From Calycina herbarum (taxonomy: Eukaryota > Ascomycota > Leotiomycetes > Helotiales > Pezizellaceae), in assembly GCA_001414485.1 (NCBI GenBank), contig LLEY01000030.1, positions 248,001 to 312,000 on the forward strand: DNA of 64,000 nt, read 5' to 3'. Shown piece after piece: positions 1-64,000 of this stretch. Positions within the stretch are counted from its first letter, which is position 1. Every line of letters begins with the position of its first letter. The notes under the pieces were generated by a model. That model had not been told where the DNA came from, made no database searches, and worked only from the letters and a program-made list of their open reading frames with translations. The position numbers were made by a program, and so were the translations under genes.

Positions 1-985
1 GCAAAAATTAGCAAACCAAGTATTATAGTTTGTAGTGTATGATAGTTAATAATACAAACCTTGACTAGTAAATAATTGGAGAATAGGATATCCGCCCGTT
101 TGTATCGTGAGCATAGAGCCATGCCGGACAGATTCTACAGAACCCTGAGCGTTGTATTTGTTGGCTATACGTAAAACAAGTTCGCATAGTATGCAACCTT
201 CCCTTGTATTGGATAGTTCCGAGAGAGAGACTTGACGAAACTTCAATAGTATAGAGTTACAGTGCGAGCAGATATTAGAAAAGGATTTTGAACCGAATGA
301 ACCATCTAATTCGGATAAACCTTTGCGTATAGAGGGTTAGATAAGCTGAATAACAAATTTTTACCTAGTACGCTACTTACCTTGAATTTGTCGAGCGAAA
401 GTATTATCAAAAATGATTTTCCATTCTTGTGGCTATTATCCAAATATAGTTAGAAAACGAAGTAAAATTGTTCTAATAATTGGAGGTTAACTTACGAGCT
501 ACACCAGCACGCACCGCAAGGTCAGCAGCAGTCACAGTTGTTCAAGAGCGTAGGTTGACTTACACGCTACACCAGCAAGCACCACAAGGTCAGCAGCAGT
601 CACAGTTGTTCAAGAGCGTAGGTTGACTTACGTCCTACACCAGCAAGGTCAGCAGCAGTCACAGTTGTTCAAGAGCGTAGGTTGACTTACAAACTACACC
701 AGCAAGCACCACAAGGTCAGCAGCAGTCACAGTTGTTCAAGAGCGTAGGTTGACTTACGGCCTACACCAGCAAGCACCACAAGGTTAGCAGCAGTCACAA
801 TTTCAAACGGAGATCTATTAACCTCCTATCGAAACAAAAGTTAGTACTATGATTAGTAATATAGTTAATATTTGCGTACATTCTACCTCACTGTATTAGC
901 TAGATACTATTTTCTATTCATAAAATCTACTTACTTCAAAAAGTCCATCTATATCATTTTGGGAAGTCGATATTTGTGCTTCCAT
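1..985 (-). CDS. HET-like protein, 5' part, with six single-codon exons (partial)
   Basis: Manual splice model on the minus strand, 5' to 3': exon 1 985-935 (ATG at 985, 17 codons); one-codon exons 825-823 GAG, 761-759 GCC, 693-691 TTT, 634-632 GAC, 566-564 CGT, 498-496 CTC; exon 8 432-381; exon 9 320-60; then donor GTTTGT at 59-54. The next intron reaches the window edge with a GCTAAT branch-like site close to it, so the gene continues outside. The reading frame is open throughout: the one-codon exons are in phase 0 and give E-A-F-D-R-L. Exon 9 encodes CSHC, then VSLSEL and GCILCEL, a double CxxC arrangement like that before the HET domain in fungal heterokaryon-incompatibility proteins. The HET domain itself is not in the window, so the family call is moderate. 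The GAG exon has a weak donor (GTTAAT) and could be skipped. Intron 1 has a perfect TACTAAC branch site. Confidence 0.7.
482..826. repeat. 9-bp inverted repeat bracketing the microexon array
   Basis: GGAGGTTAA at 482-490 and its exact reverse complement TTAACCTCC at 818-826 sit at the two ends of the intron array. In the transcript the upstream arm covers the GAG microexon and its donor, and the downstream arm covers the start of the last array intron. The two could pair and loop out the array. Nine base pairs can occur by chance. Confidence 0.5.
483..800 (-). repeat. Tandem array of near-identical 65-nt introns separated by 3-nt exons
   Basis: Period 68 bp. On the minus strand each unit is a complete intron: GTAAGT donor, GCTGAC branch site (GCTAAC in the first), GTGTAG acceptor, then one triplet, then the next donor. 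Introns at 694-758 and 567-631 are identical 65-mers; 499-563 differs by two substitutions; 635-690 is the same with a 9-nt deletion (56 nt). The intron at 762-822 shares only the 3' portion and the one at 433-495 only the first ~14 nt, so the array edges fall inside introns. The triplets at the constant position are all different (GCC, TTT, GAC, CGT, CTC, plus GAG at the upstream edge). Retaining a unit would meet an in-frame TGA, so these are introns rather than coding repeats. Confidence 0.85.
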
Positions 986-61118: not shown

Positions 61119-64000
61119 CCTACGACGTCGAGGAACAAAACCGAATACTCTTAACTTTTAAGTAGAAATCTCTTAATACTTAGAAGTAGTAATTATAATA
61201 GAAGAAGAAGACTACTTATAAGATTTAAGAAGAAGCTATATAGAAGTAGTAACGCTTTCTTACTAAGCAGCAGTAGAAGATGCTACGTCGTAGTCTTTTA
61301 AACCTATAAGAGCTTAATAAGATAGAAGAGAGAGAAAAAGAAAAGAAGGAAGAAGAAGAGAGAAAGTAGAGAGAGACGGAGGTTCTCTATCTAGTAGCCT
61401 TATCTACTTCTATTAATCCTATCTCTAAGCTAGGTCTTAATCTAGCCTTTTTAAAGACCTTCTCTTCTAACTATAAGATGTAGGTAAACCTAGGTTTCGC
61501 TAGTAGAATTCCTAAAGTTCTACTAGATACTAGTTAAGATTACTTTTTAGCTTCTAGGTGTTTTCTAAGTATAAGTAATCTATCTATTTTATTAAGTACT
61601 TGATTTTGCTTCTAATAATATAGTAGTCTAGAATTTTTTTAACTTCGTATTTAGCGTTTAGGTTAAGAGGTTAGATTTCTATAAGTAGAGCTAGTAGTGC
61701 TTCTAGTAGTACTAGTTTAAGTAGAGATATATAGAATACTAGATATATATTTATAATTCGTAGTAGTACTAATTTATAATTCAAAGATTCTCTAACTTAC
61801 TTAATTCTAAATAGTTCTAGTTTTCTATAGTCTAGTTTATTACTAGGTCTCTTAGTATTAATATTTTTTTATACTAAATAAACTTTATCTCTCTCTTTTA
61901 ACGTTAGCTTCTAACTACGTCGTTTATTATAATAGTATATATTCTATTCTACTACGAACTATAAGTCTTCTACTAGTTTCTTATATAGCTTTTTAATCTT
62001 CGAGATCTAAATTCGAGTAAGTTAGTTATCTATTATTAAAGTTAATAGTTCTTAATATACTATTAATTTATATCTATAGTTAGTATAAAATAGTATAACT
62101 AGTGTTATTTCTATTATTAAACTATTATAAGCGAATTATACTAGTAGTAGTAATTTAACCTAGTTATTCTATTAGTAGTTTATATAATAACGAAGATATA
62201 TTTTAACTACTTAATTTATATATTTATTTCCTTTATTTATTTATAGATAGAAAGCTATAGATAGCTTCTTTTTCGCTTCTAATCGTTCTATAAGAGCTAT
62301 CTAAAACTTTAAAATAAAGAGCTTATCTCTATCTAAGAGAATTTCTTTTAGTAGTTTATATCTTAAGACTACTTCTCTAAGAAATATAAAAGCTAATTCC
62401 TTAGCTATACTTAACTCTATATATAGTACTAGGATTATATACTTTATAAGTCGTTTTATAATAACTAGGATTAAGTTATACTTAACTTCTATTATTAGAT
62501 CCTTAGATTTTAGTAGCTTAATAATAAAATTCTAGAATATCGATTTCTAGAGTACTTATAGTATTAGAGTAGTATTTATCTAGCTATAGAGTATATAGTA
62601 GGAAGTCTTACTCCTAGTATAGATATTATACTCTATTATTACTTTCTTAACTATTACTATAAGTTTATTAATTCTATACTATTATCTTATTCTCTAAAGA
62701 GTTCTTTAAATTCCTTAGTATCTATAAGCTAGTAATTCGTATTATTCTTTAATAAAAGCCTTATTATTAGATTCTAGTATATAAGTTTTTTCTCTAGTAA
62801 TAGTAATTCGTATTATTCTTTAATAAAAGCCTTACTATTAGATTCTAGTATATAAGTTTTTTCTCTAGTAGTAGTAATTTTATAAATCGTTAAAGCTAAG
62901 TTCTTATTTTTAAGTTCTTTTAGAATTATAATCTTTTTATATTCTTTATCTTCTTTATAGCTTAGTTAACGACATAAGATATCTACTCGTAGATTATCTA
63001 TTTCTTTAATATAGTAGATTATAATATCGAATCTAGTAAGAGTTTATAACTACCTAGTAAGACGTCTATTACTAAGTTCTTTTATTATTATCTATGTTTT
63101 AAAGTTCTTATAATCGATAAAGACTAGTACCTAGTGTTTTATACTCTAAAGGTAGATCTTCTAGTAATCTAGAGCTAAGACTATAATAAGAAGTTTCTTT
63201 TTATAAATACTATAGTTTTATTAGATAGTATCTAATATCTTAGAGAAGTATACTATAGATATAAGTTTTCCTTTATTATTAGATTAAAGATATATAGTAG
63301 TAACTACTATATCTAAAGCGTCTATTTTAATAGTACTTAGTTTATTAGTATTAAAGTTTTAAAGAATTAGTTCTTTTATAAATCGTGTCTTAATTTCCTA
63401 GAAAGCCTTTTTAGCTTCCTTATCTTAATTAAATAGAATATCTTTTTTTATAAGATTTATTATTAGTTTCAAGATTCTAGAATATCTTTTAATATATTAT
63501 TAATAAAAGTTAATAAATCCTTAGAATAACTAAACGTTTTTAACGTTCTTTAGTAATTCCTATTCTAGAATTACTTTAACCTTTTCTAGGTTAATCTCTA
63601 TTTTTCTAAGAGAGATTTTATAGCCTAGAAAAGTAATATAAGTTACTTTAAATTCGTACTTTAAAAGTTTAAAATAAGAATCTACTATAGCGAGCTTTTA
63701 TAAGACTTCTCTAATATATCTCTTATACTTCTCTTCGAATTCTAAAAATATAAGAATATTATCTAAGTAATATATAACAGTTATCTTTAGAAGATCCTCT
63801 AGTATTTTATTATTCTATCTCTAGTAGATTACTAGTACGTTAGTTAACCTAAATAGTATTACTATATATTTATAAAGACTTAATAGTAAGATAAATACTA
63901 TCTTCTATTTATTCTCTTACTTAATTTATATTAAGCTAAAGGTATTTCGTTAATCGAGTTTTATAAATTTCTTAGCTTTACTAATCTTATCTTATAAGTA
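61119..64000 (-). mobile_element. Second Ty3/gypsy-type element, minus orientation, truncated by window edge
   Basis: Internal region of an element pointing left. The minus strand at about 63760-63790 reads VIYYLDNILIF (RT active-site block), identical in sense to the first element; further left come RNase-H and integrase ghosts (about 61900-63400) and a pol end at about 61490-61560 that matches 57440-57520 of the first element. The stretch 61190-61400 next to the LTR is a run of AGAAG-type purines on the plus strand. No intact ORF; heavily RIP-decayed. The 5' LTR lies beyond the right edge. Confidence 0.75.

What the first reader, a model, noticed from the sequence alone, without database searches (positions are those of the whole stretch)
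483..985. A protein gene built with six consecutive single-codon exons between near-identical introns
On the minus strand a 68-bp tandem repeat is exactly one intron (GTAAGT...GCTGAC...GTGTAG) plus one triplet. Splicing as predicted gives a continuous frame from the ATG at 985 through E-A-F-D-R-L into PQEWKI and the CxxC-containing HET-like exon. Seen directly: splice signals, branch sites, period, frame. Known: ascomycete introns are short and recognised by intron definition, which makes 3-nt exons mechanically possible. Inference: the array is a purpose-built or repeatedly duplicated intron module (introner-like), and I know of no named system of this form.
Basis: partly seen in the sequence, partly recalled or inferred. 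Interest (0 to 1): 0.97.

Follow-up and report, generated by a model that had tools for sequence, protein, structure and literature searches.

The report
Fungal HET gene with one-codon exons
A fungal HET-family gene, and several relatives in the same genome, hold rows of short introns with exactly one codon between each pair; the introns are near copies of each other while the codons differ, and the codons are predicted to be spliced into a protein segment that likely diversifies one amino acid at a time.

Summary
On the minus strand, triplets GAG, GCC, TTT, GAC, CGT and CTC lie singly between GT...AG introns and join a start exon to an open 634-residue HET protein that runs past the window's left end. 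The same genome holds eight loci of this form in three intron families (54 hits, 1 in the control). In the five arrays scored, codon columns are 4 to 37 times more diverse than intron columns; in this gene at least 8 of 15 codon sites changed against 2 of 251 intron sites. All 59 core introns keep GT, AG and a CTRAY branch site; in three RIP-like decayed arrays 10 of 34 donors are lost. A further HET gene, with a kinase-like region, has six consecutive single-codon exons between introns that are not tandem repeats, so the design does not depend on a minisatellite. Best reading: near-identical introns keep codon cassettes exchangeable and selection diversifies the codons, as in Podospora HNWD WD repeats but with the repeat in the introns. 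Splicing is inferred; no RNA was available. Ten literature searches found no such system.

The parts
935..985 (-). exon 1, start exon (17 codons, MEAQISTSQNDIDGLFE)
826..934 (-). intron 1, 109 nt, not a repeat copy
823..825 (-). single-codon exon GAG (E); GAG is the first triplet of the row in the five arrays as I delimited them
762..822 (-). intron 2, 61 nt, repeat-related 3' half, donor GTTAAT
759..761 (-). single-codon exon GCC (A)
694..758 (-). repeat intron, 65 nt, branch site CTGAC
691..693 (-). single-codon exon TTT (F)
635..690 (-). repeat intron, 56 nt (9-nt deletion between branch site and acceptor)
632..634 (-). single-codon exon GAC (D)
567..631 (-). repeat intron, 65 nt
564..566 (-). 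single-codon exon CGT (R)
499..563 (-). repeat intron, 65 nt, two substitutions
496..498 (-). single-codon exon CTC (L)
433..495 (-). last array intron, 63 nt, mostly unlike the repeat
381..432 (-). exon with the conserved W...F motif (PQEWKIIFDNTFARQIQ)
321..380 (-). intron, 60 nt
60..320 (-). exon with the CxxC...CxLC N-terminal region of the HET protein
1..59 (-). start of the next intron; the gene goes on left of the window to C224:246409, with the HET domain at C224:247290-247748

Best explanation
This HET-family gene carries a row of six in-frame triplets, each bounded by GT...AG introns and so predicted to be spliced as single-codon exons, and the near-identical introns likely act as a shared recombination scaffold that lets codons be duplicated, lost and reshuffled while selection likely diversifies them. 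Shown: the anatomy; an open 634-aa HET frame; seven further loci of the same form in the genome; in five arrays, similar introns with much more variable triplets; recurring blocks of codons; intact splice signals in 59 of 59 core introns; RIP-like decay of three arrays. Inferred: that the triplets are included in mRNA; that homology between introns drives unequal crossing-over or gene conversion; that the codons are under diversifying selection; that the encoded segment tunes recognition by, or triggering of, the HET module.
For: (1) Open spliced frame and HET domain. (2) The pattern TAGNNNGTAAGT, 45-75 bases, TAGNNNGTAAGT: 54 hits, all in 8 loci, 1 in the reversed control; the 6-nt-exon form gave 1 hit and 1 control hit. 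(3) HET domain just downstream of the array in C224, C1, C312 and C359 and C101. (4) Codon-column against intron-column diversity: C224 0.77 vs 0.021, C101 0.54 vs 0.116, C1 0.68 vs 0.052, C312 0.60 vs 0.087, C359 0.70 vs 0.173; permutation P from 0.00001 to 0.0017. (5) C224: minimum 8 of 15 codon sites changed, 2 of 251 intron sites, Fisher P 5e-10. (6) 59 of 59 core introns have GT, AG and a CTRAY branch site whose A lies 14-25 nt from the acceptor; 12 of the 71 introns that follow a triplet, at the ends of the five arrays, were left out of this count as not of the repeat type; in the units recognised in decayed C127, C68 and C52, 10 of 34 donors read AT. (7) C1 and C312 flanks are 95-97% identical in DNA, gaps left out, yet their arrays have 10 and 26 triplets with different codons. 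(8) The paralog at C1:762k has six consecutive single-codon exons in frame between introns that are not tandem repeats. (9) Codon blocks recur, such as AAC-GGC-CGC twice in C101 with nearly the same introns.
Against: No RNA. Skipping the whole array would also keep the frame. Intron 2 has a weak-looking donor (GTTAAT). C101 carries stops in flanking exon matches and C312 has a length difference from C1 that breaks its HET frame, so two of the five scored arrays may be in broken genes. Not every codon position stands out: in C101, 14 of 65 intron columns are as variable as the least variable codon position (2, 0, 3 and 3 in C224, C1, C312, C359). An amphipathic-helix test of the encoded peptides was negative in all five (P 0.60-1.00). 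The start exon of C359 was not found, and no HET match was listed on C52. No population data, so within-species diversification is untested. C224 units are as close to C101 units (0.907) as C101 units are to each other (0.887), so unit exchange and recent copying cannot be told apart.
Confidence: 0.7

Rival explanations
1. The array is a minisatellite inside one long intron (934 to 433) that is skipped in all transcripts; the splice-like ends are fossils of an old intron duplication.
For: A direct join from 935 to 432 keeps the frame; no RNA was seen; intron 2 has an unusual donor.
Against: Skipped triplets should be about as variable as the introns around them, yet their columns are 4 to 37 times more diverse. 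59 of 59 core introns keep donor, acceptor and branch site. C1:762k has six such exons without tandem repeats. A 502-nt intron would be long next to the 56-109 nt introns of this gene model.
Confidence: 0.12
2. Introner-like elements inserted one by one at successive codon boundaries of an existing exon; codons differ because they are the original coding sequence, introns agree because they are copies of one element.
For: Explains identical introns next to different codons in C224 without strong selection.
Against: Intron copies were found only in these few loci (lower bounds). Array length differs between close paralogs (10 and 26 triplets), and codon blocks recur, which points to duplication of intron plus codon.
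Confidence: 0.08
3. The array is mainly an alternative-splicing device: frame-neutral 3-nt exons between interchangeable donors and acceptors give many protein isoforms from one allele, as has been proposed for schistosome micro-exon genes (recalled).
For: All six exons are 3-nt units; donors and acceptors of the four repeat introns are identical.
Against: Short fungal introns are thought to be recognised by intron definition (established knowledge, recalled), which favours orderly splicing. The divergence between paralogs is in the DNA and needs no isoforms.
Confidence: 0.1

Closest known systems
Podospora anserina HNWD genes het-d and het-e (NACHT-WD repeat allorecognition genes; Paoletti 2007, PMC1805685, passages seen)
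   Same: Fungal allorecognition-type genes (their HET domain is recalled) with near-identical repeats that vary in number, a few hypervariable codons, and RIP-inactivated paralogs. Unit exchange within and between paralogs is reported there and only inferred here.
   Different: There the repeat is coding (WD40) and four codons per repeat are under strong positive selection; here the repeat is an intron and the only coding content is one codon. Pfam found HET alone in the window gene.
Introner-like elements of fungi (PMC4457414, one passage seen)
   Same: Near-identical spliceosomal introns.
   Different: Those sit in hundreds of copies in unrelated genes; these were found at 2 or 3 loci per family, head to tail with one codon between.
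Schistosoma micro-exon genes (PMC10526429, passages seen)
   Same: Rows of very short exons, mostly multiples of three, hard to annotate.
   Different: Exons mostly 15 bp within 6-81 bp (abstract: 3-81), introns 0.1-5 kb and not described as repeats in the passages seen; secreted proteins of an animal parasite.
Aphid bicycle genes (PMC9168663, passages seen)
   Same: Fast-evolving family with many small internal exons.
   Different: Internal exons almost all of phase 2; repeated introns and single-codon rows are not mentioned in the passages seen.
Trichoderma virens Xlr2 microexon (PMC11121469, passages seen)
   Same: A microexon in a filamentous ascomycete; the abstract says functional microexons had not been described there before.
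   Different: One exon used as a switch in a transcription factor, not an array.

Membership tests
HET domain proteins (PF06985) | HET domain above the curated cut-off | tested here: met
   91.8 bits against a cut-off of 22.5, residues 210-362
HET domain proteins (PF06985) | role in heterokaryon incompatibility or regulated cell death | not testable with these tools
   needs fusion or expression tests
HNWD / NLR allorecognition genes | NACHT domain and coding WD40 repeats | tested here: not met
   only PF06985 matched in the Pfam scan
HNWD / NLR allorecognition genes | near-identical repeats with a few hypervariable codons | tested here: met
   but the repeats are introns
[quoted passage not shown]
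   intron copies at 3, 3 and 2 loci; the DNA search skips very common words and its counts are lower bounds
Introner-like elements | spliceosomal intron signals | tested here: met
   59 of 59 core introns with GT, AG and CTRAY; actual splicing not tested
Micro-exon genes (schistosome type) | many very short exons between long introns (0.1-5 kb) | tested here: not met
   six 3-nt exons, 18 of about 1,900 coding nt, and introns of 56-109 nt

The most novel reading that the evidence does not exclude
A recognition-gene repertoire built one codon at a time: every amino acid of a variable segment is its own exon, and near-identical introns on both sides act as universal joints, so crossing-over and conversion can add, drop or swap single residues without breaking the frame and every product still splices. 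Selection, or even mutation focused on the triplet, supplies new codons while the introns stay uniform. The misread N-termini of relatives in other ascomycete orders suggest that the system is widespread and has been missed because gene finders and RNA aligners drop 3-nt exons.
Probability: 0.45. Interest if true: 0.96.

Novelty: categorically new. Interest (0 to 1): 0.92.

Why it matters
If spliced as predicted, these would be rows of consecutive 3-nt exons (six here, up to 26 triplets in the C312 array, whose gene may be broken), beyond the microexons described in the papers seen here, and a direct test of how far intron definition can go. It would also be a new way to diversify an immune-type gene: the repeat that carries recombination is non-coding and the payload is one codon, so homogenisation and diversification are cleanly separated. 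HET genes are numerous (150 HET stretches scored of 318 candidates in this genome), and where most of them get their specificity is an open question (my knowledge, no call). Annotation may miss the region: the model of the closest named homolog begins downstream of it (P0001, Hymenoscyphus albidus).

Tried and rejected
Amphipathic segment: the hydrophobic moment did not exceed shuffles in any of five arrays (P 0.60-1.00); dropped. Restricted amino-acid vocabulary as a general rule: 0 of 71 triplets in five arrays encode S, T, P, K, V, C or W, but block duplication makes them non-independent, and the C1:762k row (P, Y, S, H, K, P) contains four such residues; kept as a remark only. Six-nt exon arrays: none beyond control level. 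CAG-acceptor arrays of the same form: 0 hits, 0 in the control. Arrays in more distant HET genes: in five others, C363, C45, C157 and two on C320, none was seen in the 1.3-2.7 kb upstream that I displayed; the remaining HET genes were not examined. Arrays in other species by misread proteins: a search with the repetitive N-terminus of P0021 found only itself, and a search with the N-terminus of P0019 found 4 proteins including itself. Introner origin, minisatellite and isoform device are treated as rivals. Literature: ten searches of a PMC open-licence library; in the listings that I saw no system of this form appears. Subscription papers and most preprints are not held. Passages of PMC8042270 (Drosophila microexons) were seen and not used.

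Full report
What was checked. The minus strand of 985-433 was read directly. Exon 1 ends GAA|GTAAGT at 935/934. Six triplets follow, each preceded by AG and followed by GT: GAG, GCC, TTT, GAC, CGT, CTC. The last array intron ends at 433 and the next exon starts PQEWKIIFDNTF. A script that joined the exons gave one open frame of 634 aa over 11 exons, ending at C224:246409, window coordinate -1591. Pfam gives one domain, HET, at 210-362. The finding is therefore real. The details that change: four of the seven array introns are near-identical, one of them with a 9-nt deletion, and the other three are not full copies.

It is not alone. A search with two window introns found the same intron family at C101 and C68. 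A purely structural search (TAG, any triplet, GTAAGT, 45-75 bases, the same again) gave 54 hits against 1 in the reversed control. All 54 lie in eight loci and three intron families: C224, C101, C68 (about 68 bp); C1, C312, C127 (about 72 bp); C359, C52 (about 70 bp). DNA searches with the second and third families found no further loci. Between families the introns are weakly alike at best (mean z 4.9, 2.8 and 1.9 with the splice ends left out). The same pattern with 6-nt exons gave 1 hit and 1 control hit, so the 3-nt size is specific. The pattern demands TAG and GTAAGT, so rows with other signals, such as the one at C1:762k, escape it.

They sit in the same place of the same kind of gene, as far as could be seen. 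HET domains lie just downstream in C224, C1, C312 and C359 and C101. In C68 and C127, stop-ridden HET remnants lie about 7 kb further on, on the same strand. No HET match was listed on C52. In C224, C101, C1, C312 and C359 the array is followed by an exon with a conserved W...F motif, and CxxC...CxLC was aligned for C224, C1 and C359. The first triplet is GAG in these five arrays as I delimited them. In the search with this gene's HET exon, the seven best-scoring places all belong to genes with such rows or their remains: C224, C101, C359, C1:762k, C1:1008k, C68 and C312. Five further HET genes showed none in the 1.3-2.7 kb upstream that I displayed; the rest were not looked at.

The triplets vary and the introns much less. 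In five arrays the mean pairwise diversity of the three codon columns against the intron columns was 0.77 vs 0.021, 0.54 vs 0.116, 0.68 vs 0.052, 0.60 vs 0.087 and 0.70 vs 0.173 for C224, C101, C1, C312 and C359 (repeat-type introns only). Some intron columns are as variable as the least variable codon position: 2, 14, 0, 3 and 3 in the same order. In the window gene the introns need 2 substitutions over 251 sites and the codons at least 8 over 15 (Fisher P 5e-10; the star-tree minimum is a simplification). C1 and C312 are 95-97% identical in exon 1 with intron 1, in the W exon and in the last introns, yet their arrays read EMRMDDID+RI and EARRLHEERRELRQLRLHAALRLN+RL. Codon blocks also recur: CGC-CTC twice in a row and AAC-GGC-CGC twice in C101, CTT-CGT three times in C312, in C101 with nearly the same introns (by eye). 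So units duplicate as blocks, and codons then diverge faster than introns, or introns are homogenised around codons that are kept apart.

The splice signals look maintained. All 59 core introns start GTA, end AG and carry CTRAY with its A 14-25 nt before the acceptor; 12 introns at the ends of the five rows, such as the GTTAAT one here, are not of the repeat type and were left out of that count. The 9-nt deletion in the window gene falls between branch site and acceptor. Three loci have RIP-like composition, C68, C127 and C52: TA/AT 1.74-1.95 and (CA+TG)/(AC+GT) 0.28-0.49, against 1.02 and 1.03 for the window; C101, C312 and C359 lie between (1.33-1.34 and 0.88-0.95). In the units recognised in the three decayed loci, 10 of 34 donors read AT instead of GT.

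The strongest independent support is the paralog at C1:762k. A kinase-like coding region runs in frame through six consecutive single-codon exons, CCA TAT AGT CAT AAG CCG, into the W exon of a HET gene ('kinase-like' is my reading of GDLKPDN and ADLG motifs, recalled, not a family search). The seven introns around them are 48-72 nt, TRF finds no tandem repeat, and pairwise alignment scores give z of 0.9-4.5, part of which comes from shared splice signals. The design therefore exists without a minisatellite. That row may be an old array whose introns have diverged; this is inference.

Other species. The protein search found 2,375 HET relatives among the 7,993 candidates scored; the 120 listed include Leotiomycetes, Sordariomycetes and Dothideomycetes (class names from my knowledge of the genera). 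The N-termini of P0018 and P0021 contain repeated AAANxxVxGGV-like strings, and P0032 and P0071 one such string each, that look like translated intron ends. P0003, a 711-aa frame on a 2.5-kb contig and so perhaps a transcript, has a 67-residue stretch before the W motif with 2 of 67 residues among S, T, P, V, C, W, against 27% in the set (the stretch was chosen by eye). These are hints: no DNA of those species could be read here.

Mechanism. I take the HNWD system of Podospora as the working analogy (PMC1805685, passages seen): concerted evolution keeps repeats alike, a few codons are under diversifying selection, units are exchanged between paralogs, and RIP inactivates some copies. Here the same logic appears with a shift: the repeat is intronic and the variable site is the whole exon. 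That would let recombination anywhere in the repeat change the protein by whole residues without frame loss. The role of the segment is unknown; a position just before the conserved N-terminal region of a HET protein suggests tuning of recognition or activation. Splicing is not shown. The best argument for it is that skipped triplets would have no reason to vary more than the introns, and skipped introns no reason to keep 59 of 59 splice signals.

Against. No RNA; frame neutrality also allows skipping; C101 and C312 have broken flanking frames; the helix test failed; no population data. I put the splicing-plus-diversification reading at 0.7. I call it categorically new because no family tested has both its features, and ten searches of an open-licence library showed nothing like it in their listings; a paper outside that library cannot be excluded.

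Noticed in passing
L062 (C1:759501-762400), row at C1:761467-761792: Kinase-like and HET fusion gene with six consecutive single-codon exons between introns that are not tandem repeats of each other.
   Followed up: yes
L059 (C127), L021 (C68), L058 (C52): Three of the eight arrays show RIP-like composition and lost donors; the HET remnants of C68 and C127 lie about 7 kb beyond the array.
   Followed up: partly
P0018, P0021, P0032, P0071 N-termini: Predicted HET proteins of other ascomycetes (P0018 and P0021 Phaeosphaeriaceae sp. PMI808, P0032 Macroventuria, P0071 Decorospora) contain AAANxxVxGGV-like strings, repeated in the first two, that look like translated intron units, so annotation may hide similar arrays.
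   Followed up: partly
window 990, minus strand: A second ATG lies 5 nt upstream of the start codon, out of frame, and opens a 13-codon frame that overlaps exon 1 (read by eye).
   Followed up: no
array triplets of C224, C101, C1, C312, C359: None of 71 triplets starts with GT, and the only triplet ending in AG is GAG (12 of 71), as if codons that compete as donor or acceptor were avoided; the C1:762k row does contain AAG.
   Followed up: partly
window 62730-62879: A 71-bp AT-rich tandem repeat, 2.1 copies, 97% matches.
   Followed up: no
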